From contig NZ_CP137557.1 of the NCBI RefSeq assembly GCF_019249655.2, positions 3,886,001 to 3,950,000 of the forward strand: a stretch of DNA of 64,000 nucleotides, in the 5' to 3' direction. How positions within the stretch are numbered: position 1 is the first letter of the stretch; every line of letters starts with the position of its first letter. Of the stretch, positions 40,195 through 62,851 are shown one piece after another. The notes under the pieces were generated by a model. That model worked only from the letters and a program-made list of their open reading frames with translations. It was not told the DNA's origin and did no database searches. Source of the stretch: Segatella copri (lineage in GTDB: Bacteria > Bacteroidota > Bacteroidia > Bacteroidales > Bacteroidaceae). A program made the position numbers and the translations under genes.

Positions 40195-43100
40195 TTATTT
40201 CAGGGCAATCTTCCTTACTGCCACCTGTTTGCCGCCTCGTGTCACTTCTACGATTACGTTGCCCTGGATGGCTGTGCGAACCTGTTCCTTCTCAGCCTTT
40301 GCCTTCTTTTGGAGGGCGAGAACGCCATCGGCAGCATACACGCTGATGAGGTCGTTCGGCTGGAGTCCCTTGAGGACGATGGTTCTGAATCCGATAGCCT
40401 GGATGCTGATGTCTGACTTCATGTCGGTTGCCATGCGGTTGAAACTGATGGTGAAGCGATGGTTCTGCTCGCCTGCCTGGCTTGCATGGAATCGGTAATC
40501 GTCTTCCTTCAGGTCTATAGCCTTTCCGGTTTCCTTGTCCTTCAGCCATACGGTTTCGTATTCGCTGGCATCGCATTCTTCAGGAATGCTGATGGTGTAT
40601 TCACCCGTTTCCGGCAGACTGATGCCGATGCTCTGTTCTGCTTCAATGCTGATGGCAGAGAGGAGCGAGTAGCGTCCGCCGTTGCGGGTTGCATAGATCT
40701 GAGCATTCTGGCTGGTCATCCATTTTACGCCGTCGCTTCCCAGGTCGAAGTCTGATTTCGCCTCCTGAGCAGGAACTGCGTTCAACTGGAGCTGGTCATC
40801 TGCAGGAGTGCCGTTGCCGGCTCTGCTGTTTCTGTTGCTCTGTGTGATGGCGATGTCGAGGGCTCGGGTTGCTTGATAGGCTGTTGTTGCCCTTGCTTCC
40901 GAATGTCCTACTATCACGATTTCTGAATTATCCAGAGTGGCAGTCTGCGTAAACACGGCATCCATCGCTGGGATGTAGCCGGTTGTTACACCATCCGTAT
41001 TGATAGCCTTGTAGCTGCCGTTTTCTTCGCATTGGTAGATGACTCTGCCATATTCCATATCGCTATAGTTCATGGCGCAGAGATAAGGAGACCCGAAGAG
41101 GTTCCAGCCCATGTTCTCCTTGTGGGTGAACTTCAAGCCGCCACCATTGCTGCTCGACCATGGTTGCTGGTTATTGTTCTGTACCAGGGTAATCTTATCC
41201 AGCAGGCTCTTGTTGGTGCTACCGTCTTTCTCCGTGTAACTGGTTCCGTAGAAACGGACGGTCATCTTGCCATTAGCTTCCATTCTGAAACCTGCGGTGA
41301 AGTTTCGCTGGTTGTCTACGCCCTTTACCCATGCTTTACTATCGTTTTTGTCAAATTTATAGTCGTACTTGGCACGAGTAGCTGCATTATAGTAGTAGGC
41401 TACTACGCTACCATCAGCAGGATTATTTGTGCCCTCAACCTCCATATTGGTAGCCTTGAAAGGCATGGAGAAGAAGTTGGTTCTTGCCTTCAAGTTTCTT
41501 TCCACGGCAAAGTTGGTGAGGTTTACATAACTGTTGTTGCCTCTTAAACCAGCGTGGTGCTTCAAGAGTAGGAAGCCTGGGCTGAACGGATTCGTCTCTG
41601 TATAGAATGTGTTGTCGAGCTTCAGCTCCTTGTCTTCTGCCATGACATAGATCACAGATTTACCATGAGGATAATCTGATTTCTTTGCTTCTGCATCTTT
41701 TGTTAGATACCAAGTCTCGAAACATCCGTTATCAACCTTACCTCTGATGCGTTGGTTGCCGGCAAGGTCATGGTTGTGCATCACCATGTCGATGCATTCT
41801 TGAGTTTTGCTTGCGTCTGTGTTAGCGTTGATGTTGGCATTGTCTGTCTCGTCAAGCTGGTACTTCCAATAATCATCTTTCACATATTTATTATAGGTGG
41901 TTACAGATGATCTGTTGACAGCACTACCTGTCAATGATGGTAATGCGCCGGAAGCAGTTACATTGACAGACTTCACGTCTTTCACGGTTCCTAACGCCAG
42001 ACTGTTGTAGAGCAAACCACTTGCATCGCCTGTTACCTTTGCTTTTGCATCGAGGATAGAAGTAGAGAGCATACTGTTGCCCTGGAGGCAGACGTTGCCC
42101 GAAACCTTGAATCCATCAACAAGACACATTCTGGTATCTGTAGTTCCGCTGTTGAGTGTCAGTCCATTGATGGTAGACTGACTGGCAAACTCAATGATTC
42201 CTTTTCTCTGAGTAAGGAGATCCTGCACGATAGCTTCTGGTTCTGTTTTAGAACTTTTTTCTTTGCGCATCGAACCAAACATCTTGACACCAGGCATGCT
42301 GATGTTCACGTTATCAGCCTTCATATTCCTGTCTACGAAGACGTAGCCATATTTACCTGCATTCTTGTTGGCATAAAGCTCAGCCAGGTTGATGGCGCCT
42401 TGCAGGTCGTTGGTTGGGCTTTCCCAGCTTTCACCTGTTCCTGTAACTGCAGAACCTTCTTTTACATAGATAATCTGAATCATCTTCGTGTCACACTCGT
42501 ATGCACCGATATCTATGTTGTCGCCAATCAGACGGGCAGTATTGCCCAAGTCCTTTTCGGAGTTTATATTAGCATTTTGCTGATATTTGTCGTTGCTTCC
42601 TTGATCAAGTAACTTGAGGCTAGGTCGAATTCTATAGTCACCGTTATTGGGATCAACAAAGTTCGGACCATTTAGCACATCACCATTCTCGATAGAACTA
42701 GCTATCACGACATTTTTGTTATCTGTATTCAGATTTTGAGAACCATTCTTCCAGGCGACAGAATTATACACGTTGTCTGTTACACTAACCGCAGTGCCTG
42801 TATTGTTGACAAATGTGGCATTTGTTATGTCTGCTGATTGTGAACCGTCAATAGTAAGACCATCTCCGATACCATCTGCAAACAGTACATTCCACATGTG
42901 TATGCCATCCCCCAGGGTGTTGTCTACCTTCATTCCGGTTCCTTTATTCTCTCTAAAGGCACAATGATGGAGCCTCATTTTTTCTCCCTTTCCGGCTTGA
43001 TCATTGTTAACCTTCGCATTTACTCCCACACCACTCTGGTTCTGGAATGTGAAACCGGAAATAGTCACCGGCTTACCATTCGTTACGATATTAAGCAAGT

Positions 43101-46100
43101 TTTTGGTTTCGCCCACCTTTGCTGGGTTCTCAATGAGTACCGAAGGCTTGCTGAAGTCTTGCACCTCTGTTCCGTCAGCATTCTTCGAGCCTGTACAACC
43201 ACCTACAAGTTCAATCGATGTTATATACTTAGCCTTTTCGTCATTGTTCACAATGAGAGAGAAGGCATCGCCGCTAGAGTAGGTTGGCGAATAATAAGTA
43301 CCTCCACGTACAAACACCTTTCTGTTGTTGTTGGTTGTAGTACCTGCAGATACGTTGCCAGAAGGGTTAGCCATGGCAATGATGGCACCACGAAGGTCGG
43401 TGCTTTGGTTATCCCAACTGCTACCATCGCCATTTCCTTTCTCTTCCGTACCGATATAAACCTTTTCTAAGTCTGTAAACTTGAATACATACTGGAATTC
43501 ATACATGCCGATGTCGATAGGCTTTTCTCTCACTACACCTTTCTCGTCTTTCGGACCAACGTATCTGTAGTATTCCTTACTGCTGTTAGCAGAACGGATA
43601 TACTCAGATCGATAACCATATTCCTTAAGGCGATTATTGTGCATACTCCACCATTTCTGATATTTACCACTCTCGTTTGTATCGTCTGCATCCTTCTTTC
43701 CATCACCTGCATCTGTAAGCACAGAGATAGCCTGTGGATTCCACTTGGCATCCTGTGTATAACCTTCGTAACCCTTTGTCGTTGTAGGCGCTGTGAAGCG
43801 TGGACCATCCGATGCGATGTTCTCCTTGTTCAGCTTGATGTTGCCATCGGTTGCAGGAGAAACTGTAGAAGCAGGTAATTTATCCCAGGCGCAGTTGCGC
43901 ATGTGATCTCTTTGGAGGAGCACACTATTATCTGTAGATTCATTACCCCAAATGGCGGTATTATATAATATAGGTGTAATCGTACCATTTTTCACCTCGT
44001 TCTCCACATGGATGGCTCCATCTTGCTTTGCCTTGTTGTTCACGATGAGGCTGTTTACGATGTAGGCATCCTGATAGCCCGCAGCCATACTGCCAGCATC
44101 GTTTGCTCTACGGATGTAGATGGCTCCGCCTTGCGAAACTTCTGTGCCCGTATATCTGCCACAAGTTACATCATTGTTGGCTAAGAGCGAGTTGACGATA
44201 TGCAGGTTTCCATTCTCAGATTCTGTGAGATAGAGATAGATGGCTCCACCCTTACCTGGTTCGGTGATGACATCCTGACTAGCCTTTTCTGATACGTCTC
44301 TATTGCCGCTGATTGTACTGCCGATGATGTCCAGACTTGCATTGTTGGCATAGATAGCTCCGCCATGCAGACCGGAGTTTTTGATCAGTCGGCAACGGTT
44401 CAATGTATAGTTCACGCGGTTGGTGTAGATAGCGCCTCCACGACCAATCTCGGCAACTTCGTTAGTTCCTCCTTCTTCTTTCTTCAGCTGTGTCATGGTT
44501 TCACCATTCATGATGGTAATACCGTCTAATACCACTTCATTGTTCAATGTTGCCGAAGTACCTGTGGTGCCCGCATTGCTGTAGACTACATGATATACAT
44601 TACGCTCCTTTTCCGATGCCTTGATGTCACCGGAAAGAATCGTAGGATTCTGGAACTCCCATGGCTCTATCAATCCGTTCTTATTGTTGTCGGTCATGTA
44701 GTTCTTGTTGCGGTTAGCCAAGATGTCTTTGATGTCTCCATCTGGAGTCAAAGTATTACCTCCAAAGCTTGTAAACTTATCTCCAGCTTCTTCTCCCGTA
44801 GTAGGATTAACTGGAGTTGAAGAATACAGGTCATCTTTCGAGAAACTGCCGAAGATATCTACGTTCACAGGGATGGTGAAACTCTGCAAGCGGCGGTCTA
44901 TCGTGTTCTGCTCTTGCGAAAGATCTTTATTCTGTCGCATCTTGCTCGGCTTATAGGTTCCGCCTGTCATCAGAATCTCGAAGTGGGTAGTTTCATCAGC
45001 TACTCCCTCTTCTCTAGCCTCATTGATATAGTCGAGGGCTGCTTCAAGACTGTTGAAAGGAGTTAGGAAGGAGCGGCCATAATACTTTGCCTTCTCTTCT
45101 TCTGTTACAATCTCACCACCTGTCTGAGAAACAAACAGGCGCTTCAGAAGCTTGGTATTATCAAACGCAGGCAGATCAGATGTGTATGCACCTGCTGTCT
45201 GTTGCTTGGTCATGGTTCTTTCCTTGCCGGTAATATCGTAGCTGCTGATACCATAATCCTTCCATGCAGTTACGTATTCTTCCAAAACTCCGTTGTCAAT
45301 CAATGGTGAATAGGCACGAGGCTTGAAGATTTTGTTGTCGTTGAAGTAACTGTCAAGATCGCTAGTCATCTCCGTGTTCATTCTGTTGGCTGGCAACGCC
45401 ATCTTCTCTACGAAACAATAGTTGTATGGATAGAATTTCTCCGTATATTCTCCCAGTCCCTGCAGATAGTCGTAAGATTGATAGTTCACATCACCGCTGA
45501 TGTTGTTGTCGGTCTGTGCCGAATTTCCCCATATCACGGAGTTACCGCCAATCAGGGAGTTTTCCTCCTGGTAGATTCCGCCGCCAATGGTTGCCTCGTT
45601 TCTGGCGATGGTGCATGAGATGACGTAGGCATGGTAGTTCTTGGTGTCTTCGTTCTTGTCGTTGGAACGAAGTGCATAGATGGCACCACCTTTCTGTGCC
45701 TTGTTTCTTACGATGACACTACCGCTTACGATGCTACCTTTCAGCAACATGAGAGCACCGCCTTGGGTAGCCTGACAGTCGGAAATCTCACAGTTGCGTA
45801 CATGTGCCTTTCTTGGCACAATGGCTGCACCACCCATACTCTTGAAGCCCGACTTGTCGCTTGCGTTACCGTCTATCAGGCGACAGCCATCTATGATGGT
45901 ATTCTCTGTCAGGGCAGTGGTGTTGTAGTCGTCATAGTTGCCCGTAGGCCATTTGCCGAAGCACACGGTGTGGTAGCCGTTCACCTCCTGGTTAACGGCA
46001 GAACCTTCTTTTACTTCGGTTATGGCACTTAATACCGTCTGGTATGTGCTGATACAGTCGCGTTTGTCATTATCCCAATTGGCGGTTCCATCTTTCAGCT

Positions 46101-49100
46101 TTCCTCCTTCCTGGTCACCCTCATAGTAACCACCCATCAGGCATACTCCGTTAGGAATCAGGAAGGTATAACTCTGCGGATCGCTAGGGTCTGCCAGTGT
46201 GTTGGCATGATAAGTAAAGCGCTTTCCGGTTTCATCAGCCTGATAACCTGCCACTTTTACAAACACCTGATGCTTTAGGTTGCTATCTGTAATGCCTTGG
46301 TTCGCTGTTTTAAATTTCTCGCCGGCAGCGGTCAGCACACTCTGCAGCTTGTCAGCACAGGCAGCGTTTTCCGGACTGTCTCCACTTCTGTTTCCCCATC
46401 CGTTTTGGGTTACATAATAAATGTAATCTATAATATTTGCGCTGTTTGTCTTTTTCTGTGGTGCGATATTGGCATTATTGTCAGCCTCGTAGGCACCGAT
46501 ATCAATGGCGCAGTCCTTGATACGGTTGGTATAGTCCATATCGGTTTCCGGAAGGATGATTCCATTTCCTACATTTGTGGTTCCACCATTCAGACACTTG
46601 TTACCCGTCAAACCACCCGCCTCGTACAGACGGAAGTTGTTCTTCAGTCGGGCATTGCGGAAGCGGAAATTGTTTCCACTTTCGTAGGTCTGGTCTTCAA
46701 ATGGGAAAGCCAAATTTGTGCCAGTGAAATTTCCATCGCTTTCCTGGAATTTGTTGTTGATGTTACCACTGTTCATGTAGCAGTTGTGGGATGGATTCAT
46801 CTTGCCCGATGCAGCTGAGTTTACTTGATCTGTGACACTTCTATTACTGTTGTCGTAATTATCATAGATAATACAGTTGTAGAGTGAGAGCTGTGAGCTA
46901 ACTCCGGTTTTGGCATCCTGCCAGTGATAGATGCCGGTTCCGTTTGTCGCCATATTGTAGGCGATGGTGTTGTTGTAGAACTTGGCACTTTCCAGGAAGA
47001 TGCCTCCACCCCAGCAGGTTCCGTTATAGCAGCGGTTGTTTGCCACCACAAGGTTGAATCCGGTACCTTGAATCATATAGGCTCCGCCTCCATAACTTTC
47101 ACTGCTGTTGGCATAACTCAGGTTTCTCAGCAGGTAACTGTTCGAAATCTTACTGTTCTCGCCGTCCATATACAAACCGCCACCACGTACGCGACTGCCA
47201 TGGTTGAAGTTGTTGACGATGATGAGATTTTCCAGTTCTACACCTCGGAATACACGCACACCTGCTCCTCCGTCACGGTTGGCACCAGGATAGTTGATGA
47301 TGTAACCGTGACGTACAGAGAAGCCATCCCATTTGGCATGCTCGTAATCCACGTAGTTTTTATCGTCTTTTAAAGTTCCTTTATAGCGTACGGCATTACC
47401 ATCAGTACGTGAGGCGTTTCCATCACCCGATGGCGACCAGGTAGGAAGGCATACGTCTGGCTGATAGAGAACATAATGGCGCTCTGTTTTCCCGCTGTTT
47501 ATCAACGTTTTTGTAAAGTCATAATTAGAGCCATCAGTAGGATTTTTCTCCTGATACCACATTTCCTTATCTCCGTTTTTGAAGTATACAGGCGATTCCT
47601 TTCTGATCTGTAGAATGGTTTCATACTTGGTCTTTTCCAGATTTTCGTATTCCTTACGTGCCGGCACGTATTGTGACAGCAGCGGATGGCGGTCGTCTTC
47701 TCCTGGGTAGCCTTCGTATGGGAAACCGCCATAAACCTTCACGTTGTCTCTGATAACGAATCCTTTGTAGTCGGTATAGATACCTGCACCTACCCACACC
47801 ACAACGCTGTCTTTTTTTATTTTATTCAACTCAGCTGCTCTTTCCACAGCATATTGTAGACCGCTGATGTATCGTTCGTCTCTGTTGTTGGTGATTTTAT
47901 TATATGTTCCCCAGCCAGAGAGATACTGCTTGTCCTGATTTCCTGAGTTAGTCCAGAAATCACCATAAGAGTCAGTTTCTGAACGATACTTGCCGTTAGT
48001 CTGACTATAATCTGTATTGTCAATAGTGGTGCTAAGCAGCGTATTGTCACTCTGCTTTTCATAGAAATCATTGCCGTTTCTTGCCTTTGTATTATCACAC
48101 ATAGCGTTGCCGATGATAGCCTTGTCCCAGCTGCTTCCATCATATTCGGTATTTGATTCATTCAGAATATTGAAGTTAGGGTTGCCGTCCTGGTCGTCAT
48201 TATTGGCGTCGCTGATGCTTTCATACTTCTGGTTGTACGAACGCACGTAGATAATCTTTCCTGCTTTTGGCAGGAGAGCTTCGTATGCACCCAGGTCAGG
48301 AACACCACCTAGGTTGCGGTCTTCGCCGGTGATGTCCTTGACTGTTGTGGTTGCATTGTTTTCTTGGGCGCTGTTGATGATGCGGCCAGCCTGTACAGAA
48401 CTGGTCAGCGGGCGGAAGGATGAATAGCCTCCGTAATAAACGTTGCCGCTCATCTTGGCACCCACTTCATTGGTTGGGTTGCTGAAGTTCAGGGCTCCGT
48501 CTTTTCCCAGAGTGTTGATATCGTTGATATTCGTGCTGTTCTTGCATTTCGAACCATCCCATGTGCCGTTGATGTTCAGTTTGTTTCCTACAGCATACGA
48601 GGTAGCCTTCACAAGGTCGTTATCTGGCGCTACTCCCTCATTGTTGATGATGCTCACGTGGTTGAGTGTGAGTTTGTTGTTGCTGCCTTGAGCCTTGTTC
48701 AGATAGATGATGGAAGGCAGCTCCGATGGACTTGGATTATGCGGATCCTTGCTTGTGTTGTTATTGATGACGCAGTTTTCCAGTTCCAATTTCACATTCA
48801 CGGCATCCGGCATGGTAGCGATAGCACCGCCATCTGTCGCCGTGTTGTTCTCAAAGATGCAATTCTTCAGCTTCACGGTGGTTGCTTGGCTGCTCTGGTC
48901 CATGCTGCCTATCAGCACGCCGCCACCATAAGGCATGTAGGCAGTACCGGCGGCGTATGCATGGGTAAAGGCATAGCCGTCGATGGTGATGTTGGCACCC
49001 GCTTCGATGCGGACCAGATGGTAGAGGCCCTCGTTGAGTTCAGAACCATTCAGGTTTCCGTTCACTTCGGTGCGGTATTTGATAGGGGCACGGTCTTCAT

Positions 49101-52100
49101 CCTTTGGATTCGGATTCTCTGAATATCCTGGATAACCGCCATACACGGTAATTGGGAGTAGGCAAGGTGGAACGCTGAAGGTGCATGACCTGGCATCTGT
49201 TTCCTCGCACTTGTAGGCTATCTTCGGTTCGAACACACCCTCGCGGCTACAGATTTCAAACTCCCAACCGCTGTTCTTGCTGATGGTAAATTCCTCTGGC
49301 GTAGTGTTGTCAGCAGTAACTACCTGAACCTTGTCTCCATCCTTGATGTTGGCAAGATAATCCAGTACTTCATCTACTGTTGATGAGGTATAGCTCTTTT
49401 CCCACGACTGTCCTGTTCCGTCCACCAGTTCTCGTGAACGGTCAAAGTAGATGCGCAGGCGTTTCTTGCTGTCATTCTTTTCAAATACAAGGTCGTGGTT
49501 GTCAGCCATATAGGCTCCTGCTGACGGAACCGAACTGATAGCTTTTCCGCTCAGGTCTATTTTTGGCTGATACAGGTAGGAAGATGGCAGGAGAGCATAG
49601 CTGATGCCCACGTTGCGCAGTCGGCTACCTGTCAATGTTTCCCAGTAATAGTTCACCGTCTTCATGTCTGTAAGAACGCCACGTTTCTCGTTGAAGGCTT
49701 CCACCGTATTGTAAGGTGCCTCCTTGCCCATCACGAATCCCTTGCCCGAGTAATACGTGTTGATGGAGATGGTTCCGCTCTGATAGGAGCTGGTCCATTT
49801 GGCTGCATTTACATCCGAGATGGCGTTGTTGTAAAACTGTACGGTCTCTTCTGATGGGTTGGCTGCATAAATCTGTGCCATGGACGCTGAGTTGCTGGTG
49901 CCAGACTTGTGCCGGAGCAGCGAGTTGTTCCAGATGACGTTGTTGGCAAGAAGACCCTTTTTCTTAATATACACACCACCCGTATTGGATGACAGCTCGT
50001 CAGCGGCATCTGATGTGTTGGTGGTGTAGTTGTTGACGATGGTGTTGTTAATCACCAGTCCGTGACCATCCAGATACACAGCACCATTTCGGGTACTGGT
50101 ATTGTTACTGATTACCGAGGTGGCAAGAATCTGATAATAGGCTTTCTCTGAGTTATTAGCGTCACCATTCAGATATACACCCGCTCCCTGATAGGCAGAG
50201 CAGTTGGTTACCATGCTTCGGGTGATGAAGCCGGCTTCGTCTATATAGATACCTCCGCCCTGGTAAGCCGAACAGTTGTATACCAGGTTACCTTCCGTCT
50301 GTCCGTTCTTGCAGTAGATGCCGCCGCCACGTGGCTTGATGCTTCCGCTTTCTTTCATGCCCGGGTTACAGAATCTCACGGTGCAGTAGCGCATTCGGGC
50401 TGATGGGTCGTTGATATAAACGCCTGCACCACAGCCTGGGGCGTATTCGGCTTTGTTCGTATCGTGAAATTTACCTCCCTCAATGGTGAAGCCTTCAAGA
50501 TATACTTCGTCGGTAAAGGCATTTCCTCCAGGCAAGGGAGCAAACCATACCACATGGTAGGAACCGCTGTTCTGTATGTTCCAGGCTTCGTCATTATTAC
50601 TCCAGTTGGCATCGTCGCTTCCCTTGAATTCCGCACCCCTGATGATGGATTCTTGTTTCCAGCCCCATGGCTTTAAATCCTTGGATTCCTCGATGCGCTC
50701 GGAACGTCTTTTTTCGGTTCCCTTAAATGCACCATAAACGCTGATGCCATTCTTCATCAGCAGGGATACTGGGGATGATGTATCATCGGTAATGCGGTCT
50801 TTTACTACATAGGTTCCGGCTGCTACCCAGACTTCGCCTTTCTCGCCTGGTGCATTATCTGCCAAATCGTTGATGGCCCACTGGATATCGTCCGTGGCAT
50901 CATTCCATGTTGATCCGTCGCCCTTTCCCTCTTTCTGAGGCTTCACGTATCTGATGCGTCCTGCCTTCATGCGGGCATACTCGTAGGCGCCGATGTCGAT
51001 GGTGCTTGTCTGATAGCGTGTTCTACCCATGATGTCGGTAGAAGTTGTTTCCAGGGTTGCATTAACTACAAGATTTTTATAGTATTCCAGTTTTCCCTTG
51101 TTCAGAAGGGCAGAGGTTTCCTCGAAAGTGAAGGCGGTGCTGTATAATTGCTTCAGGTTACTGCTGAATGAGAAGTCGTAACCCTGGGTCACGGCACTCT
51201 GCTTGAACCAAGGGGCTGGCTCTATGCCGTGGTTCTCGTTGCTGATCCTTACGTTCCCGTTAGCGTCGGTGTTGGCCTTGGAATTGGTTACCTCTACTTC
51301 CGGAAAAGCACAGGAATAGAAGGCAGGACGGCTGTCTTGCTTGCTGAGTGCAGTGGAATGCCAGAGCACGGTGTTGTAAACCGCTCCGCCGTCATTGCTG
51401 TTAGAAGCCCCGTCTGTGGTCAGGTCTGCGGCTGATACGGTGTTGGCAATAACAGAACAGTTGACGATTTTCGATGTGTTCGAAAGTCGGATACCGCCGT
51501 TCGTATTGTTGTTGATGTTGCAGTTGTAGACGGTGGCTGTTCCGTCTATCCACATACCGCCACCTTCGTTTTCGCTGGAGCCTCGCTTGCCTGCCACATT
51601 ATTAAAAATGCTGCAGTAGCTAATGGCTGACAGCTGGTTGGTGCAGGAATTATCTACATAGATGGCACCGCCGCGCATGCCGTAGTTGTTCGCAAAGTTA
51701 CATTGCGAAATACGGAAGAAGCGACTCTGGGCATTGCCGTCGTTGCTGTTCACCACGTAGATGCCGCCACCTCTGCCATTTGCAGAAGTATTCGCTCCAC
51801 TGGCATTACCTGCTGCGATGAGGAAACCGGAAACAATGGTTGGCTTGTTGCCGTCGTTGGTGTTGTCCTGTGTTACGCCCATCTGGAGGGTCAGCACATG
51901 GGTGGCATTGTCGGTGCGGGTGGTGTTCTCTGGATAGATAATCAGCTGCTGGCTCGCCTTGTCGTTGGTATCGATATCGCCCACCAGAGCCGTCTGATAC
52001 TTCATCTGATATTTGTGCCTGCCCGTAGGGAGATCGTTCTTGATGGTTTCATTTCCTGCAAAACCTCCATACATGGCAACGCCCGAAGGGAGAACGAAGC

Positions 52101-52152
52101 CTCCCTCCGGTGCCTTGTAGATGTGACCGGTAATGTCCTCATAGCCTTTCAC
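40195..52152 (-). CDS. Giant secreted parallel beta-helix protein, main frame (N-terminus out of frame)
   Basis: 3,985 codons without interruption. The nominal start is a GTG in the middle of a domain, so the true N-terminus is the signal-peptide frame at 52160-52354. About eight repeated modules each open with a motif like YVK...GDGSSWD and close with IDIGAYE or a variant; closings lie near 50990, 49510, 48270, 46480, 45180, 43510, 42490 and 41720. Within modules about 20 GGAIY/GGGIY turns mark right-handed beta-helix coils, as in Pmp-type and pectate-lyase-like surface proteins. The last 80 residues (LQPNDLISVYAADG, then VIVEVTRGGKQVAVRKIALK) resemble a type IX secretion sorting domain. It is the last gene of the fimbrial operon and is probably a surface adhesin or fimbrial tip. 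Tip placement is inference. Confidence 0.85.
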   Translation of the reverse strand: MKGYEDITGHIYKAPEGGFVLPSGVAMYGGFAGNETIKNDLPTGRHKYQMKYQTALVGDIDTNDKASQQLIIYPENTTRTDNATHVLTLQMGVTQDNTNDGNKPTIVSGFLIAAGNASGANTSANGRGGGIYVVNSNDGNAQSRFFRISQCNFANNYGMRGGAIYVDNSCTNQLSAISYCSIFNNVAGKRGSSENEGGGMWIDGTATVYNCNINNNTNGGIRLSNTSKIVNCSVIANTVSAADLTTDGASNSNDGGAVYNTVLWHSTALSKQDSRPAFYSCAFPEVEVTNSKANTDANGNVRISNENHGIEPAPWFKQSAVTQGYDFSFSSNLKQLYSTAFTFEETSALLNKGKLEYYKNLVVNATLETTSTDIMGRTRYQTSTIDIGAYEYARMKAGRIRYVKPQKEGKGDGSTWNDATDDIQWAINDLADNAPGEKGEVWVAAGTYVVKDRITDDTSSPVSLLMKNGISVYGAFKGTEKRRSERIEESKDLKPWGWKQESIIRGAEFKGSDDANWSNNDEAWNIQNSGSYHVVWFAPLPGGNAFTDEVYLEGFTIEGGKFHDTNKAEYAPGCGAGVYINDPSARMRYCTVRFCNPGMKESGSIKPRGGGIYCKNGQTEGNLVYNCSAYQGGGIYIDEAGFITRSMVTNCSAYQGAGVYLNGDANNSEKAYYQILATSVISNNTSTRNGAVYLDGHGLVINNTIVNNYTTNTSDAADELSSNTGGVYIKKKGLLANNVIWNNSLLRHKSGTSNSASMAQIYAANPSEETVQFYNNAISDVNAAKWTSSYQSGTISINTYYSGKGFVMGKEAPYNTVEAFNEKRGVLTDMKTVNYYWETLTGSRLRNVGISYALLPSSYLYQPKIDLSGKAISSVPSAGAYMADNHDLVFEKNDSKKRLRIYFDRSRELVDGTGQSWEKSYTSSTVDEVLDYLANIKDGDKVQVVTADNTTPEEFTISKNSGWEFEICSREGVFEPKIAYKCEETDARSCTFSVPPCLLPITVYGGYPGYSENPNPKDEDRAPIKYRTEVNGNLNGSELNEGLYHLVRIEAGANITIDGYAFTHAYAAGTAYMPYGGGVLIGSMDQSSQATTVKLKNCIFENNTATDGGAIATMPDAVNVKLELENCVINNNTSKDPHNPSPSELPSIIYLNKAQGSNNKLTLNHVSIINNEGVAPDNDLVKATSYAVGNKLNINGTWDGSKCKNSTNINDINTLGKDGALNFSNPTNEVGAKMSGNVYYGGYSSFRPLTSSVQAGRIINSAQENNATTTVKDITGEDRNLGGVPDLGAYEALLPKAGKIIYVRSYNQKYESISDANNDDQDGNPNFNILNESNTEYDGSSWDKAIIGNAMCDNTKARNGNDFYEKQSDNTLLSTTIDNTDYSQTNGKYRSETDSYGDFWTNSGNQDKQYLSGWGTYNKITNNRDERYISGLQYAVERAAELNKIKKDSVVVWVGAGIYTDYKGFVIRDNVKVYGGFPYEGYPGEDDRHPLLSQYVPARKEYENLEKTKYETILQIRKESPVYFKNGDKEMWYQEKNPTDGSNYDFTKTLINSGKTERHYVLYQPDVCLPTWSPSGDGNASRTDGNAVRYKGTLKDDKNYVDYEHAKWDGFSVRHGYIINYPGANRDGGAGVRVFRGVELENLIIVNNFNHGSRVRGGGLYMDGENSKISNSYLLRNLSYANSSESYGGGAYMIQGTGFNLVVANNRCYNGTCWGGGIFLESAKFYNNTIAYNMATNGTGIYHWQDAKTGVSSQLSLYNCIIYDNYDNSNRSVTDQVNSAASGKMNPSHNCYMNSGNINNKFQESDGNFTGTNLAFPFEDQTYESGNNFRFRNARLKNNFRLYEAGGLTGNKCLNGGTTNVGNGIILPETDMDYTNRIKDCAIDIGAYEADNNANIAPQKKTNSANIIDYIYYVTQNGWGNRSGDSPENAACADKLQSVLTAAGEKFKTANQGITDSNLKHQVFVKVAGYQADETGKRFTYHANTLADPSDPQSYTFLIPNGVCLMGGYYEGDQEGGKLKDGTANWDNDKRDCISTYQTVLSAITEVKEGSAVNQEVNGYHTVCFGKWPTGNYDDYNTTALTENTIIDGCRLIDGNASDKSGFKSMGGAAIVPRKAHVRNCEISDCQATQGGALMLLKGSIVSGSVIVRNKAQKGGAIYALRSNDKNEDTKNYHAYVISCTIARNEATIGGGIYQEENSLIGGNSVIWGNSAQTDNNISGDVNYQSYDYLQGLGEYTEKFYPYNYCFVEKMALPANRMNTEMTSDLDSYFNDNKIFKPRAYSPLIDNGVLEEYVTAWKDYGISSYDITGKERTMTKQQTAGAYTSDLPAFDNTKLLKRLFVSQTGGEIVTEEEKAKYYGRSFLTPFNSLEAALDYINEAREEGVADETTHFEILMTGGTYKPSKMRQNKDLSQEQNTIDRRLQSFTIPVNVDIFGSFSKDDLYSSTPVNPTTGEEAGDKFTSFGGNTLTPDGDIKDILANRNKNYMTDNNKNGLIEPWEFQNPTILSGDIKASEKERNVYHVVYSNAGTTGTSATLNNEVVLDGITIMNGETMTQLKKEEGGTNEVAEIGRGGAIYTNRVNYTLNRCRLIKNSGLHGGAIYANNASLDIIGSTISGNRDVSEKASQDVITEPGKGGAIYLYLTESENGNLHIVNSLLANNDVTCGRYTGTEVSQGGAIYIRRANDAGSMAAGYQDAYIVNSLIVNNKAKQDGAIHVENEVKNGTITPILYNTAIWGNESTDNSVLLQRDHMRNCAWDKLPASTVSPATDGNIKLNKENIASDGPRFTAPTTTKGYEGYTQDAKWNPQAISVLTDAGDGKKDADDTNESGKYQKWWSMHNNRLKEYGYRSEYIRSANSSKEYYRYVGPKDEKGVVREKPIDIGMYEFQYVFKFTDLEKVYIGTEEKGNGDGSSWDNQSTDLRGAIIAMANPSGNVSAGTTTNNNRKVFVRGGTYYSPTYSSGDAFSLIVNNDEKAKYITSIELVGGCTGSKNADGTEVQDFSKPSVLIENPAKVGETKNLLNIVTNGKPVTISGFTFQNQSGVGVNAKVNNDQAGKGEKMRLHHCAFRENKGTGMKVDNTLGDGIHMWNVLFADGIGDGLTIDGSQSADITNATFVNNTGTAVSVTDNVYNSVAWKNGSQNLNTDNKNVVIASSIENGDVLNGPNFVDPNNGDYRIRPSLKLLDQGSNDKYQQNANINSEKDLGNTARLIGDNIDIGAYECDTKMIQIIYVKEGSAVTGTGESWESPTNDLQGAINLAELYANKNAGKYGYVFVDRNMKADNVNISMPGVKMFGSMRKEKSSKTEPEAIVQDLLTQRKGIIEFASQSTINGLTLNSGTTDTRMCLVDGFKVSGNVCLQGNSMLSTSILDAKAKVTGDASGLLYNSLALGTVKDVKSVNVTASGALPSLTGSAVNRSSVTTYNKYVKDDYWKYQLDETDNANINANTDASKTQECIDMVMHNHDLAGNQRIRGKVDNGCFETWYLTKDAEAKKSDYPHGKSVIYVMAEDKELKLDNTFYTETNPFSPGFLLLKHHAGLRGNNSYVNLTNFAVERNLKARTNFFSMPFKATNMEVEGTNNPADGSVVAYYYNAATRAKYDYKFDKNDSKAWVKGVDNQRNFTAGFRMEANGKMTVRFYGTSYTEKDGSTNKSLLDKITLVQNNNQQPWSSSNGGGLKFTHKENMGWNLFGSPYLCAMNYSDMEYGRVIYQCEENGSYKAINTDGVTTGYIPAMDAVFTQTATLDNSEIVIVGHSEARATTAYQATRALDIAITQSNRNSRAGNGTPADDQLQLNAVPAQEAKSDFDLGSDGVKWMTSQNAQIYATRNGGRYSLLSAISIEAEQSIGISLPETGEYTISIPEECDASEYETVWLKDKETGKAIDLKEDDYRFHASQAGEQNHRFTISFNRMATDMKSDISIQAIGFRTIVLKGLQPNDLISVYAADGVLALQKKAKAEKEQVRTAIQGNVIVEVTRGGKQVAVRKIALK

Positions 52153-52159
52153 CCAGATT

Positions 52160-52354
52160 TCATCGCCAGGCTTGGCTCAGTGCATTTTCCAGGGTGATAG
52201 CATTCTCCCATGATAAGCCGTCGCTGCCGGAGGTCGTTATCTCGGAATCTGCTTTTACATAATAGGTCTTGCCTTGTGCAGACAAGGCGATGGAGCAACC
52301 CAGCAACAGGAGGGTTGCGATAAGCTTGCAGTATGTTGGATAGAGTTTTCTCAT
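52160..52354 (-). pseudogene. Signal peptide and first residues of the giant beta-helix protein, separated by a frameshift
   Basis: The ATG at 52354 opens a signal peptide (LIATLLLLGCSIALSAQ), then KTYYVKADSEITTSGSDG and LSWENAITLENALSQA, which is the usual opening of the beta-helix modules. It stops 14 bases into what should be the next segment. The main frame resumes as PGDEIWVKGYED. Adding one AAGCC unit to the local AGCCAAGCC would restore SQAKPGDEIWVKG exactly. So gene and signal are intact apart from a 5-bp slip, a sequencing error or phase variation. It starts 21 bp after the upstream lipoprotein gene. Confidence 0.85.
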
Positions 52355-52375: not shown

Positions 52376-53593
52376 TTAGAATTTGTCGATGATGATGTTG
52401 CTCGCATTACCGATTTTGGCTCCCTTGATGGTTACGTTGATCTTGTACCATTGGGCAGGATTGAAACTTTCTGTCCGGTTCTTCAAGTCGAAAGTCACCT
52501 TGTCGGATTTTTCCTCTGTTGCGCCATCTTTTTTCGTCTTGATATCGAAGGTGATGCGTGGCTTCGTAGTGCCATCAGGGAAGGTGTAATGATAAACTCT
52601 TCCGTTACGCTTGCTGATTTCCGAGGTGTTGATGAAGTTTTTCTGTCCGCCTACGGATGTCTTTTGGGTTATACTTGAAGCGGCGGCATAGAGGGTAGGG
52701 AAGAGCCGTCCGTATCCTGCACCCGATGTGGTGGAACCTGTCCCTGAAGTTCCTGTGCCTTCTGCCTCACCATGATAAGTAAAGCCTTCTACTTTCACAT
52801 CGGTGAACTTCGGATTTCCCTTGGCATCATTCTCGTAAGCTCCCTTAGCATCCCATTGGATGTCGAGTTTGGTGGCAAGTCTGCCCAGCACCATGCGCCA
52901 ATATCGCTTGGTGCTGCTGGTGGTGTTCGAGCTGAATTCCACGGGAATCTCTCGTTTGTTGGTCAACGTGTTGTCGACAACATTCACTTCTGTTGCATAA
53001 CCGCTGGCTACGCTGATGAACTTGGCTATATCCATCGTATTCTTTGTTTTATCAAATGCGTAGTCGTTGGAAATCTGTAAGTTATAGATGTCTTTGTTGT
53101 GGTCTTTTCCGTCCTTTGCTATCTCGCTTAAGGCTTTTTCCAGGTCCAAACCTTTGCCCTTGCTATAGGTTACACCATAAACGCAGCAGGTGCCTGGAGG
53201 CAGATAGATGGTGTAGTCGTGATAGCCGTTGGCATCGGCAGGCGACAGGGTAGAGGTGTAATGGCTCACTGGCTTGGTACTCTCAAAATCCTCTTTTTTT
53301 CTGAAGGTATCGTAATACACCATCGTGTTGGCTGAACCGTCATAGATGTCTTTTCCCGTTGTCTTTTTCGTATAGGCGATGATGATGGTGAGCCGGTCCC
53401 AGTCCACCTCGTCGTGGGCGTCTTCTCCCGGGTCTCCGACTCGGGTGCTTGACTTGTCGTTAGGCACGGAGAGGGTGAGCGAGATGGGAGCCAACGTGTC
53501 CTTTGGCCTCTCCTCGCTCTGCTCGCTTCCGCTGCATCCTGCCAGCATGATAAGCGATAGTATAACAAATATGTATTTCGTAATATGATTCAT
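52376..53593 (-). CDS. Fimbrillin-like lipoprotein (FimA/Mfa family)
   Basis: 405 residues. A lipobox (LIMLAGC, Cys20) marks export by the Lpp route, as for fimbrillin precursors. An SSTRVGDPGEDA segment at about 48-60 lies where FimA/Mfa-type proteins are cut by a trypsin-like protease before assembly. The remainder is beta-rich with Thr/Ser-rich loops and ends with FNPAQWYKINVTIKG, a common C-terminal pattern of these families. It lies between the Mfa2/FimB-like gene and the beta-helix gene, where minor or tip subunits are encoded. Which position it takes in the fibre is unknown. Confidence 0.75.
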   Translation of the reverse strand: MNHITKYIFVILSLIMLAGCSGSEQSEERPKDTLAPISLTLSVPNDKSSTRVGDPGEDAHDEVDWDRLTIIIAYTKKTTGKDIYDGSANTMVYYDTFRKKEDFESTKPVSHYTSTLSPADANGYHDYTIYLPPGTCCVYGVTYSKGKGLDLEKALSEIAKDGKDHNKDIYNLQISNDYAFDKTKNTMDIAKFISVASGYATEVNVVDNTLTNKREIPVEFSSNTTSSTKRYWRMVLGRLATKLDIQWDAKGAYENDAKGNPKFTDVKVEGFTYHGEAEGTGTSGTGSTTSGAGYGRLFPTLYAAASSITQKTSVGGQKNFINTSEISKRNGRVYHYTFPDGTTKPRITFDIKTKKDGATEEKSDKVTFDLKNRTESFNPAQWYKINVTIKGAKIGNASNIIIDKF

Positions 53594-53615: not shown

Positions 53616-53650
53616 GAATTCTTCACTCTTCGTTCTTCACTCTTCACTTA
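53616..53650 (+). repeat. 35-bp dispersed repeat, exact copy
   Basis: The same 35 bases as the reverse complement of 25426-25460. It lies between two fimbrial genes and overlaps the stop codon of the Mfa2-like gene, as the diverged copy at 6513 overlaps the proA stop. Confidence 0.85.
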
Positions 53651-54622
53651 AATCTCAATGTCGTGGCTTCCGCCTGGCTTCCAGTCGAGTTTCACGCTTA
53701 CGCCTACGGCGGTGTTACTGGTAGAGAGCGAACCGTCTTCCTTCAGTCGGGTCTTGATAATCTTAAGCTTGCCGGCTTTCAGCGGTTCGTTCATGGTGAA
53801 GATGGTTTCGGTGTATTTGTCGTTCACCTTGGCGATGACGTGGTAGCGCCATTCCGGTTTGATGCTCGGGAAGCAGACTGTGTATAGGGCATCGTGGGTT
53901 GGAATGGAGTTGGTGATGAAATCCTGGTTGATTCTCTTTGCCCTGACCATCGTGTTGAGGCTGGAAGAATAGGTGCTGTCGTTCACCTGGAATTGGGTTG
54001 CCATGCCTTCTACAAATCCCCAGAGTTCTGTGGGCTGCACCTTGCTCTGGTCGATGACCACCACAGCTGAGCTGTTTGCCATATAGAGCGTGGTTTGCAG
54101 ATCGTGTTCGAAATCGTTCTCGTCGATGGAGAGTCGGGAAGTGAACAGTCCGATGTTGTGACTGTTGATGGTATCTTTTGCCTCTTGCCGCAAAGCGAGT
54201 GATCTACAGGAGTTTGCGTTGATGATTTTTACGTTGTCGGCGCTTCCTGTATTGGCGAGAGAGAGGTTCTGATAGTTGTTGCGTGGCAGATAGATGGTGT
54301 AGGATACCGAGTTGGCCCCCATCTTGTTTGCCTCGTGGTGGGAGAGTTCTTCGCCTACGAAGAAGGAGAGGTCGTTGTCGTGGGCATGGTCGGTGAATAC
54401 CTTACTGAGTGCCTGTTTCAGCCGGGCTGCAATCTCCTGTTCTTCGATGAGGTTCAGATCCACGTCAATCACGGTGTTGATCTGCGTATTGAGTTGCAGA
54501 TTATATTGTATCTTATACTCTTTGCCGCAGTCGCTCATATCTTCATCAATACATGAAGATAAACTGGTGATGAGGCTGATGGTCATCACGGATGCCAGTA
54601 AAGTGTTATATAGTTTTTTCAT
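53648..54622 (-). CDS. Mfa2/FimB-family fimbrial anchor lipoprotein
   Basis: 324 residues from the ATG at 54622; the frame upstream is leader. The lipobox is SLSSC (Cys24), then IDEDMSDCGKEYKIQYNLQL, the typical opening of Mfa2/FimB proteins. The pattern of two beta-sandwich domains continues with VSYTIYLPRNNYQNLSLAN and ends KLDWKPGGSHDIEI. These proteins anchor the fibre in the outer membrane and limit its length. It is the third gene of the operon, after the 518-bp hairpin-rich gap. Confidence 0.85.
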   Translation of the reverse strand: MKKLYNTLLASVMTISLITSLSSCIDEDMSDCGKEYKIQYNLQLNTQINTVIDVDLNLIEEQEIAARLKQALSKVFTDHAHDNDLSFFVGEELSHHEANKMGANSVSYTIYLPRNNYQNLSLANTGSADNVKIINANSCRSLALRQEAKDTINSHNIGLFTSRLSIDENDFEHDLQTTLYMANSSAVVVIDQSKVQPTELWGFVEGMATQFQVNDSTYSSSLNTMVRAKRINQDFITNSIPTHDALYTVCFPSIKPEWRYHVIAKVNDKYTETIFTMNEPLKAGKLKIIKTRLKEDGSLSTSNTAVGVSVKLDWKPGGSHDIEI

Positions 54623-54687: not shown

Positions 54688-54839
54688 CTATTGCACACTA
54701 CACGGAAGTTCAGCAAATAGCTGTGTATAAGGTTGTTATGTGAGTGTAGTGTGGGCGCTGACACTACACGAATACTACACTACATTACACGGAGCGAGAT
54801 GAGTGTAGTGTGGTGTAGTGTTAGTGTAGTGTGCAATAG
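54688..54839. repeat. 152-bp inverted-repeat element rich in TGTAGTG words
   Basis: CTATTGCACACTACAC (54688-54703) is the exact complement of GTGTAGTGTGCAATAG (54824-54839). Between them GTAGTGT or its complement occurs about eight times. It would fold into a long hairpin in the transcript between the fimbrillin and anchor genes. Further along (54900-55060) are GGCAGTTAACTGCC, a perfect 14-bp palindrome, and a TTGCCC/GGGCAA stem. No gene is present in 54623-55140. Confidence 0.8.
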
Positions 54840-55140: not shown

Positions 55141-57042
55141 TTAGAGGTTTACATCGAATTTTATACCATCCTGCCATTTAAGATCTACTGCAAGACCTAC
55201 GTTAATCTTTGATGTACGCATATCAGGGATATGGTTGTATGCCTTCTTCAAGTTTGTGATGGTGAAGTTGGCAATGGTGGTATGATCCTTGACAAATACA
55301 CGGTCGACAGTTGTGGTAGTATTTCCTTCGAGCTTCAATTCACCAACCAAATAGAATTTGGTGTTTGCAGGAATTATGCCTTCTGCACCATAGAAAGCTA
55401 CACCTGAATTATTTTCTAATTCTACGGTTACAAATACGTTGCTTTGCTTGTTGGCAGTTGCATCCTTGTTGTCCAATACCAATGTGTAGTTCGGGCTTGA
55501 TTCTGTTGTTTTTGCTGCAAAACCAAAATTCATGTTATTATCGTAAATCGTATAACTGAATTCATTAGTATTGGTAGCATATGGTTCGAAATTCCAAGCT
55601 ACACCTTGTGGCTGTCCACCAACTAAAATACCTGTAACCTTGAAGCCTTCTGTTGGTATATTTATGGTGTTGTTCTTGTCATATCCAAAATTGCCATCTT
55701 TTGCATTATCTTCTAATGGACCATTATTGCACTTTATAGTTGATTTCAAGCATGCTACACCATATTGGAGTGGATTTTGTAATGCAACGAAACGAGTTCT
55801 ATTTTCAACTACGTCATTGTAACCTGTGTTCCAAATTGTACCTTTAGTCCATTCCTCGTATGTTGGTAATTTTGCAACTGCAGTAATCTCCTCTTGGGAT
55901 GTCTTTACTGGAGAACTTACAAAATATGCTAACTCTGCAGGGTATGTGATTTTGGTATAATCAATGTTGTTTCCTGCATTGGTTGCTCCTATGCCAACAT
56001 TGTTTGCATCGACAAAAGCAAATTGATCAGTATTCCATTGTACCTTTGCTACACCATCAGGTAAGTTCTTGTTTCTTGGAAATTCTACATCCTTGAGGGT
56101 GGTGCTTAGAGCGGTTTTACAGTTCTCGACGATTTTTTTGGCCAACTCGTTTTCCGTAGACTCATCCTTACCACCGATAACGTTTTTTAAGTCAGTAATG
56201 AGTTCTTTTACTGAAGTGGCAGAACCCGCAGTCAAGCTTTTAAATTTCGAGTAGCGAGAAGCTAATGCCTCGCGCTCATTCTCTGTGCCGAAATCAGATG
56301 GGGACTCCTTCTTAATTTCAGACCATTTGATGGTCTTTTTGTTGCCTTCAGGTCCTACCTCTATGGAAGTACCTGCAATAGTGTTCAGTGCTGTCAAAAT
56401 ATCTTTGCCATCTTCTGCAAAATTTGTTCCATTATAGGCTTTAACCAAATTGAACTTAAGCTCTGTTAGTGTTGGCTTTGCCCCTGAAGTTAATTTTTCA
56501 TAAGGATTAGTCAATGCACCAGCTGCAAAATTATCTCTAACGGTACTCTGCCCTGTTGTTCCATTATATAAATTTCTTGGAGCTTTAGCATACAGAATAA
56601 TATTCTTTGTTCCGACAGGAATAGCAATGTCACGATAAACACTACGCCAAGAAGTCATGTTCGTTCCGCTGACGTTATCTTTACTTGATGCATTTCCGCT
56701 AGTTCCAAGGTTTAGGGCTGCGGTAGATGTAGATTTCTCTCCAGTACCTGTATTTGTTCCAGGTGTGCCCTCGAAAGAAAACATTTCCATATTGTCCAAT
56801 CCCAAAAACGTTTTATCGTTTTGGGTATAGTGCTCTGTCATTCTCGTTGAAACTCTGGCATTTCCGCCCTCATCATTTCCTGCATACGGAATGTTCAGGT
56901 AGAACTGTGTCTTCACCACCTGTCCTGCCACACCTGATCCTCCGTCCAGAGGATCTTCTGAATCTGAAGAGCAGGAAGTGAATCCTGCTGCGCTTGCAAG
57001 AAGCATTGCACTTGCCAAGCTAAATAGTTGAAATCTTTTCAT
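55141..57042 (-). CDS. Large fimbrillin-like lipoprotein, probable main subunit
   Basis: 633 residues. The lipobox is AAGFTSC (Cys24). An arginine-containing site (GNARVSTRMTEHYTQ, about residues 62-76) is a possible maturation cleavage. The body is beta-rich with a long insertion (about 200-330) of helical, charged character (NEREALASRYSKFKSL, STENELAKKIVENCK), which is unusual for the family. The C-terminus, INVGLAVDLKWQDGIKFDVNL, matches the end pattern of Mfa1/FimA-type fimbrillins, whose last strand completes the neighbouring subunit. The position after the DUF3575 gene and before Mfa2/FimB supports the role of main subunit. Confidence 0.78.
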   Translation of the reverse strand: MKRFQLFSLASAMLLASAAGFTSCSSDSEDPLDGGSGVAGQVVKTQFYLNIPYAGNDEGGNARVSTRMTEHYTQNDKTFLGLDNMEMFSFEGTPGTNTGTGEKSTSTAALNLGTSGNASSKDNVSGTNMTSWRSVYRDIAIPVGTKNIILYAKAPRNLYNGTTGQSTVRDNFAAGALTNPYEKLTSGAKPTLTELKFNLVKAYNGTNFAEDGKDILTALNTIAGTSIEVGPEGNKKTIKWSEIKKESPSDFGTENEREALASRYSKFKSLTAGSATSVKELITDLKNVIGGKDESTENELAKKIVENCKTALSTTLKDVEFPRNKNLPDGVAKVQWNTDQFAFVDANNVGIGATNAGNNIDYTKITYPAELAYFVSSPVKTSQEEITAVAKLPTYEEWTKGTIWNTGYNDVVENRTRFVALQNPLQYGVACLKSTIKCNNGPLEDNAKDGNFGYDKNNTINIPTEGFKVTGILVGGQPQGVAWNFEPYATNTNEFSYTIYDNNMNFGFAAKTTESSPNYTLVLDNKDATANKQSNVFVTVELENNSGVAFYGAEGIIPANTKFYLVGELKLEGNTTTTVDRVFVKDHTTIANFTITNLKKAYNHIPDMRTSKINVGLAVDLKWQDGIKFDVNL

Positions 57043-57077: not shown

Positions 57078-58619
57078 TTAATTAAAAATTCTATCATATT
57101 GCATGAGGTTCTTCTTCGCCTCCTCATCGCCAGTCTCCATCGCCTGCTGCCAATAACGGCGGGCGGCTTCTCGGTTGCCCGTCATGTAGTAGGCTATGCC
57201 GAGGGCATTGGCGGCTCGCTTGTCGGCTTTTACCTTCTGCAATTCCTTCAACGCCTCCTGGTAACGCTCCGACTTGAGCAACTGGGTGGCTAGGTTGATG
57301 GTGGTCGCCGCCTCGTCAGGTACGTAATCGTAGTAGATGCGGAGGAAACCGGAATTGCGCTGGTTGCCCAGAATCTTATCACGAAGTTCTGCCCATGCCT
57401 TGCCTTGGTCGATACTCTTGATGCGACGCTCCCTGCGGTCGGCATCAGGTTCGCTGTCGATAATCCTCAGCAGTTCGTCCCGGCATTTCAGGTCGCTCTC
57501 CTTGATACTATAGCGAAGTTCAGCCCAAGCCTCTCCGCCATTGTTGCACTCGAAGTGCGAATCGGGAAGCAAGGTGCGTTGCTGAATATAATCCTTCAAT
57601 GCCTCTGCTCGCTTACCAGCCAACTGTTCATTAAATTTCACGGAACCATCGATGGATGCAAGACCCACTATCTGGATAATCTTCACCGAAGAAGTGGTAT
57701 CCTTCATGATGGCTTTGGTGATGTCGATAATCTGGTCGAGCACCTTGTTATTATTGCGGAACTCCTGCGTAATCTCAGCCTTCGACTTTGGGAAGAAAAT
57801 GTAGAGTGCTCCTTCTTCCTGGCTCAAAACCAAATCCTTGGTGTAAGGACGATAGGTCTTAATATCTTGAAGCACAGGGTTGTTCTTCTGTAAATCGCCC
57901 GCCTTGCCCGTGTTGTCCTTGACGAACGAAAGGGCTGGGATAAACTGGATTTCGTTGAGCGTGCAATTATCTTCAGGAAGGATGATCTCCTGCGGCTCCT
58001 TCTGGCGGCAGTTGTCCATGCGGTCGGTAGCCCCGATGTTGTAAACCAGCGAAACAGCCAACTTGGTTGGCATCACGAAAGTCTTGTTTTTTTTCTCGAT
58101 AGCTGTACCGCATTTTCCATAACAGTTATATTTGGTATAGCGAGTGAATCCCACTCCCAGTCCCAGTGCCGTTTCCAGGTTCCATCTGTTGCTCTTGCCG
58201 AGCGACCAGTCGTAACCATACACCAGTCCTACTGCACCCAAGTCACCTTGGAACCGATGCTTTTTTAGCTCTGGAAAAAAGCCGAAGGGGAAGTGTACGC
58301 CACCCGCATTGTAATGCGAGTAGAGTATGTTGGCTCCCAAGAAGTGTCCGATGTAGGGGCATCCAAGCCAGTATCTGATTTCCGGTTGTATCGCAATGTG
58401 CTTCAGCTTTTTGTTTCCACTATACGTAAATGTGTTCCATCCTAATGATAGATCCATCGACAATCGGTTAGATAGTCTGGTTTCTGCAGCGATATTGGGT
58501 GTTGTTGTAGCCCAGTATGCTAGGTTCGTCTTCAATCGCCAGTCTTGTGCCAGCGCGGAATTCATCGTAAGAGTAGAAATCAAGAGGAGCAGCATGCGCA
58601 GTCCATTACTTCTATTCAT
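57078..58619 (-). CDS. DUF3575/OmpA-domain outer-membrane protein with TPR tail
   Basis: 513 residues. A signal peptide (1-24) is followed by a DUF3575-type beta-barrel (about 26-190: [42 protein letters not shown]). Then comes an OmpA-like domain (about 250-420: [34 protein letters not shown], where the family's D and R residues bind peptidoglycan), and two TPR-like repeats at the end. In Bacteroidetes, DUF3575 proteins are the first gene of Mfa-type fimbrial loci, where they support assembly. It is 35 bp upstream of the fimbrillin gene, with the operon promoter at 58769-58800. Confidence 0.88.

Positions 58620-61317: not shown

Positions 61318-62851
<1,534 letters not shown>

What the first reader, a model, noticed from the sequence alone, without database searches (positions are those of the whole stretch)
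52152..52200. Giant surface protein is frameshifted at a short AAGCC tandem repeat
The signal peptide (52354) and the 3,985-codon body (40195-52152) lie in different frames. Adding one AAGCC unit at the local AGCCAAGCC (about 52171-52179) restores an unbroken SQAKPGDEIWVKG reading. The site is just after the signal peptide, where slippage would switch secretion of the whole adhesin on or off. It could be phase variation, a fixed loss or a sequencing slip. The body of almost 12 kb carries no other stop, which argues that the frame has been under recent selection.
Basis: partly seen in the sequence, partly recalled or inferred. Interest (0 to 1): 0.72.

Follow-up and report, generated by a model that had tools for sequence, protein, structure and literature searches.

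The report
Inherited frameshift silences giant surface protein
In this gut bacterium (close to Segatella copri) the gene for a giant surface protein is cut off from its secretion signal by a small deletion; broken-looking forms of the same kind occur in other strains beside intact ones, so it looks like an inherited loss-of-function variant rather than a sequencing error or a dedicated on/off switch.

Summary
The frameshift is real in the sequence: a 64-aa signal-peptide ORF (52160-52354, minus strand) ends just before a 3,985-codon open body (40195-52152) in another frame. The window is close to Segatella copri; strain iA622 has an intact 4,047-aa version, 5 nt longer at this point. A sequencing error is unlikely: of 220 distinct homologues listed in two capped searches, 179 run from an upstream start through the site and 22 start at the window's GTG position. 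The residual AGCCAAGCC tract is at chance level (30 in the gene, 30.2 expected) and is absent from the six intact relatives whose DNA I could read. In residues 251-750 the window clusters with nine homologues; all ten are off. Other N-terminal breaks, and one apparently independent net 5-nt loss, suggest recurrent loss. Best reading: a segregating loss-of-function allele of a giant beta-helix-like surface protein at the end of a putative pilus-like operon. Slippage may have caused it; reversible phase variation is not supported, but not excluded.

The parts
52160..52354 (-). 64-aa ORF: signal peptide plus first residues of the giant protein, ends at TGA 52162-52160
   Evidence: 22 listed homologues carry the identical 62-aa segment fused in frame to the body
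52160..52177 (-). frameshift site; residual 9-nt period-5 tract at 52169-52177; net 5 nt shorter than intact S. copri iA622
40195..52152 (-). 3,985-codon body of the giant protein (GTG start), about eight beta-helix-like modules judged by eye from recurring GAYE-like motifs, cut off from its signal peptide
   Evidence: NCBIfam choice-of-anchor Q 63.8 bits, cut-off 25; Pfam Beta_helix 18.5 bits, below its cut-off of 25.9
52376..53593 (-). 405-aa putative lipoprotein directly upstream; 63% identical to its neighbour-gene counterpart in iA622; similar-looking sequence upstream in L007 and L008 (by eye)
   Evidence: lipoprotein model LPAM_1 17.8 bits, below its cut-off of 20
53648..54622 (-). 324-aa putative lipoprotein from ATG 54622 (listed as 334 aa from TTG 54652)
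55141..57042 (-). 633-aa putative lipoprotein, pilin-like by gene order only; 50% identical to its iA622 counterpart
   Evidence: fold not established
57078..58619 (-). 513-aa DUF3575 protein with OmpA-like and TPR matches below cut-off, first gene of the putative operon

Best explanation
The window carries an inherited loss-of-function allele of a giant, strain-variable surface protein. A net 5-nt loss right after the signal-peptide segment puts the 12-kb body out of frame. Translation from the normal start yields a 64-aa peptide; anything started at the downstream GTG would lack a signal peptide and stay inside the cell, so the protein is effectively off. The deletion probably arose once in this lineage, perhaps by replication slippage over a short, imperfect direct repeat, and was passed on and moved between strains by homologous recombination. 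Shown: the two frames, the intact relative, the recurrence of bodies starting at the same position, the all-off cluster, and the absence of a longer-than-chance tract. Inferred: that the other site-starting proteins carry the same deletion (their DNA was not readable), a single origin, the recombination, slippage as the cause, and absence of secretion.
For: Two frames and an open body. Intact iA622 copy, dN/dS 0.26 over 3,965 aligned codons. Of 220 distinct homologues listed start just below the site, 179 run through it from an upstream start, 19 have other starts. 22 intact homologues share the window's 62-aa signal segment exactly. Residues 251-750: the window's cluster is 10 of 10 off. Repeat at chance level. 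No such repeat in six readable intact relatives. Other N-terminal breaks. One off lineage also carries an in-frame internal loss of about 640 residues (P0046-P0049), and P0045 ends earlier still.
Against: DNA at the site is known only for the window, iA622 and more distant species. Site-starting proteins could in principle be gene-caller start choices or carry other lesions. P0129 seems to show a second net 5-nt loss at the same place in another haplotype (one contig), which fits a mutational hot spot. A second cluster in residues 251-750 mixes 4 off with 29 on members, and a third has 5 off and 1 on. 17 of the 22 site-starting bodies are still full length (3,972-3,991 aa), so decay is not far advanced.
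Confidence: 0.7

Rival explanations
1. Reversible phase variation: slipped-strand mispairing at the short repeat switches the giant protein on and off, as pentamer repeats do in the leader-peptide region of Neisseria opa genes.
For: Site lies directly behind the signal peptide; on and off forms coexist among homologues and within one body cluster (4 off of 33); P0129 suggests a second, independent net 5-nt loss; 2 of 101 intact proteins carry a junction variant that would fit a longer perfect tract.
Against: Tract at chance length; absent from intact iA622 and five more distant species; 10 of 10 off in the window's own cluster; the two junction variants lie in another signal haplotype, none among the 22 intact proteins with the window's signal segment; the gene also seems to be silenced by unrelated lesions.
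Confidence: 0.15
2. Assembly or sequencing error in the window.
For: A single small indel in an otherwise perfect 12-kb frame; no reads available; no whole genome held for the window.
Against: 22 listed homologues from other records start at the same position, while 22 intact ones with the window's own signal segment are called from the ATG; the window shares a body tract with nine of those off forms and with no listed on form.
Confidence: 0.06
3. The split is functional: +1 programmed frameshifting at the stop, or reinitiation at the GTG, still makes the protein.
For: Only 7 bases lie between the stop (ends 52160) and the GTG at 52152; 17 of 22 site-starting bodies are full length.
Against: Intact copies need no frameshift; a GTG-started product has no signal peptide. 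No shift signal was searched for.
Confidence: 0.05

Closest known systems
Neisseria opa genes (CTCTT repeats in the leader-peptide region)
   Same: A pentamer-sized indel near the signal-peptide region takes a surface protein out of frame (passage of PMC3960869).
   Different: opa has variable numbers of repeats and switches at about 1e-3 per cell per generation (same passage); here under two units, at chance level, with no sign of switching in the data seen.
Type V pili of Bacteroidota (tip, stalk and anchor pilins)
   Same: Putative operon of lipoprotein genes ending in a large surface protein; passages of PMC12632263 describe lipoprotein pilins and tips with a ligand-binding domain.
   Different: No pilin family or solved pilin matched the three lipoproteins (one search gave only two weak S-layer hits, E 0.026); the model of the 633-aa protein is unusable; the giant protein is a roughly 4,000-aa beta-helix-like protein.
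Choice-of-anchor Q (NF041518) domain proteins
   Same: 63.8 bits against a cut-off of 25; recurring GAYE-like motifs.
   Different: About eight modules in one protein and a mosaic sequence between strains.
Ordinary strain-specific pseudogenes of surface proteins (general knowledge)
   Same: One indel near the N-terminus with an otherwise intact frame.
   Different: Off forms make up 19 of the 120 closest homologues and occur on several recombinant bodies.

Membership tests
Simple-sequence-repeat contingency locus (phase variation) | Repeat tract longer than expected by chance | tested here: not met
   9-nt tract; 30 in the gene, 30.2 expected
Simple-sequence-repeat contingency locus (phase variation) | Tract present in on copies and relatives | tested here: not met
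   absent from iA622 and from L005-L009; DNA of the other intact S. copri-type copies was not readable
Simple-sequence-repeat contingency locus (phase variation) | On and off states mixed within one lineage | tested here: inconclusive
   residues 251-750: window's cluster 10 off, 0 on; others 4 off of 33, 5 off of 6, four off singletons
Simple-sequence-repeat contingency locus (phase variation) | Reversible switching in culture | not testable with these tools
   no reads, no cultures
Choice-of-anchor Q / right-handed beta-helix protein | Curated family model above cut-off | tested here: met
   NF041518 63.8 bits (cut-off 25). Pfam Beta_helix stays below its cut-off
Choice-of-anchor Q / right-handed beta-helix protein | Beta-helix fold | tested here: inconclusive
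   mean pLDDT 56.5, residues about 130-300 more confident with periodic short strands; best PDB match 9cdv_A E 5.5e-5 but TM-score 0.33; pectin and pectate lyases only at E above 0.06
Type V pilus operon | Pilin fold or family match of the lipoproteins | tested here: inconclusive
   no pilin family or PDB sequence match; model mean pLDDT 28.8
T9SS type A cargo | C-terminal sorting domain above cut-off | tested here: not met
   TIGR04183 13.9 bits, cut-off 23

The most novel reading that the evidence does not exclude
A giant surface protein of an abundant gut commensal exists as a balanced on/off polymorphism: off alleles, made repeatedly by small N-terminal lesions with a hot spot behind the signal peptide, are kept and moved between strains by recombination with the 12-kb body intact, so that a strain can lose or regain exposure of the protein by exchange with neighbours.
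Probability: 0.2. Interest if true: 0.55.

Novelty: new member of a known kind. Interest (0 to 1): 0.33.

Why it matters
If right, a very large surface protein of a common human gut bacterium is made or not made depending on the strain, so strain-level studies should score this gene as on or off and not only as present. It also warns against reading two-unit repeats as phase variation: a large public protein set and a chance model settle much of the question.

Tried and rejected
Dedicated slippage switch: rejected as the best reading because of the chance-length tract and the all-off cluster. Sequencing slip: judged unlikely because of recurrence in other records. Advanced pseudogene decay: not seen in the window (dN/dS 0.26, no stops).

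Dead ends: the search for short N-terminal peptides (13 hits) did not return the window's own 64-aa ORF, so the other off forms could not be paired with their upstream half. Two scans of viral contigs found no copy. At DNA level only 4 of 397 related genomes matched, iA622 over the whole query and 3 others over 24-43 bases. By protein, 16 of 398 genomes matched, seven besides iA622 at 42-45% identity. The model of the 633-aa protein is unusable, so no fold search was run on it. No title or abstract start in the listings deals with this gene, and one search found no paper; these listings are capped and the library holds open-licence papers only.

Counts to read with care: searches list the best 120 of 1,865 and of 1,665 proteins, and each scored only the candidates sharing most words. 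The '179' is a motif count: site motif found with more than 40 residues before it; signal peptides were not tested one by one. One search used 30 of the 120 proteins. One search used the window plus 123 of the 220 distinct proteins (124 rows; 122 kept in its last segment). An earlier count said 18 of 120 site-starting proteins; the correct count is 19.

Full report
What is there. On the minus strand, an ATG at 52354 opens a 64-aa ORF beginning with a signal peptide (judged by eye) and stopping at TGA 52162-52160. The giant body lies in another frame: open from 52176, with the first usable start GTG at 52152, running to 40195, 3,985 codons without a stop.

Where it comes from. A scan of genome contigs (one genome per species) found one relative of the first 300 body residues, in Segatella copri strain iA622, 94% identical. 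A 4.3-kb stretch of other genes of the window matches that genome at 95%. The window is thus S. copri or very close to it; no whole genome is held for it. In iA622 the gene is intact: 4,047 aa from the signal-peptide Met, and 5 nt longer than the window across the interval (counted by eye). Window and iA622 bodies align over 3,965 codons with dN/dS 0.26 and no stops, so the frame was under purifying selection until recently.

Is the repeat special? No. It is a 9-nt period-5 tract. The gene holds 30 tracts of that length, with 30.2 expected from 50 first-order Markov shuffles, and the window holds 168. The six intact copies whose DNA I could read do not have it: iA622, L005, L006, L007, L009 and L008 up to its contig end. 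In two further relatives, L004 and L010, the motif used to find the site was not found in the fetched stretch.

Is it an error? Probably not. One search lists the best 120 of 1,865 homologues of the first 400 body residues. Of these, 101 run from an upstream start through the site and 19 start just below the break, at the position of the window's GTG. A second search, whose length window left out the longest forms, listed 120 of 1,665. Together they give 220 distinct proteins: 179 through the site, 22 starting at the GTG position in six distinct 250-residue haplotypes, and 19 with other starts. Of those 19, P0151-P0154 and P0193-P0198 begin further down the body; the other nine are distant relatives with their own starts. 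Twenty-two intact proteins carry the window's 62-aa signal segment letter for letter, so gene callers do choose the upstream ATG when it is in frame. That the 22 site-starting proteins carry the same deletion is an inference, since their DNA could not be fetched.

Is it a switch? The evidence is mostly against. Clustering the window with 123 proteins by body segment shows a mosaic gene. In residues 251-750 the window falls in a cluster of ten, all off and none on. An on copy with that tract would be identical over residues 1-400, the part that ranks by, and so should have been listed. The other off forms lie in a cluster of 33 with 4 off, a cluster of 6 with 5 off, and four singletons. This fits an inherited off allele whose 5' part has recombined into several bodies, but recurrent loss would look similar for the scattered ones. 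N-terminal loss also seems to occur in other ways. Short N-terminal peptides (sequences) include P0131, 46 aa, with a longest contig of 232 kb, and P0132, both ending where intact relatives read on (apparent nonsense codons); P0133, and probably P0130, end in shifted frames; P0129 runs into the same shifted frame as the window but on a different haplotype. Counting its codons gives 9 nt where intact copies have 14, an apparently independent net 5-nt loss at the same place. That case rests on one contig of 2.2 kb. It is the best evidence for a hot spot. Two of 101 intact proteins have a junction variant that would fit a longer perfect tract, both in another signal haplotype; none of the 22 with the window's signal segment has it.

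What the protein is. NCBIfam's choice-of-anchor Q domain scores 63.8 bits against a cut-off of 25; Pfam Beta_helix stays below its cut-off. Recurring GAYE-like motifs suggest about eight modules (by eye). A model of body residues 1-400 has mean pLDDT 56.5, with a more confident middle (about 130-300) of periodic short strands. Its only PDB matches at E 0.001 or better are three chains of Rhombotarget A (best 9cdv_A, E 5.5e-5) with TM-scores of about 0.3; pectin and pectate lyases appear only at E above 0.06. The C-terminus resembles a T9SS sorting domain only below cut-off. Upstream lie a DUF3575 protein and three putative lipoproteins; the last of these is 63% identical to its counterpart beside the giant gene in iA622. 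This gene order resembles a type V pilus operon as described in passages of PMC12632263, but no family or solved-structure match supports pilin identity (one search gave two weak S-layer hits). 'Adhesin' is therefore a reasonable guess, not a result.

Mechanism. Most likely a single small deletion, possibly by slippage across a short imperfect repeat, separated the signal from the body. The cell would make a 64-aa peptide; any product of the downstream GTG lacks a signal peptide. The closest precedent is the opa pentamer repeats in the leader-peptide region (passage of PMC3960869), which differ in having variable repeat numbers and rapid switching. A review passage (PMC11868660) gives the criterion for finding such loci, repeat numbers not expected from genome composition alone, which this site fails.

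Verdict. A real frameshift, best read as an inherited loss-of-function allele of a strain-variable giant surface protein; phase variation not supported but not excluded; interest moderate to low.

Noticed in passing
window 54688-54703 and 54824-54839: Perfect 16-bp inverted repeat 120 nt apart, with a nested ACACT-rich inverted repeat (54761-54832), just upstream of the 324-aa lipoprotein gene. iA622 has different inverted repeats at the same place. Either a hairpin or a candidate invertible segment; orientation in other strains not tested.
   Followed up: partly
window 58948-60636: IS1182-family transposase between the operon and a ribosomal RNA operon (16S 61318-62849, tRNA-Ile and tRNA-Ala, start of 23S).
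   Followed up: no
P0046-P0049 and P0045 (homologues): An off lineage with an in-frame internal loss of about 640 residues; P0045 ends earlier still.
   Followed up: partly
P0113 (homologue): A signal-bearing form of 3,491 aa on 26 contigs whose match to the window ends at body residue 3407: apparently a common C-terminally shortened allele.
   Followed up: no
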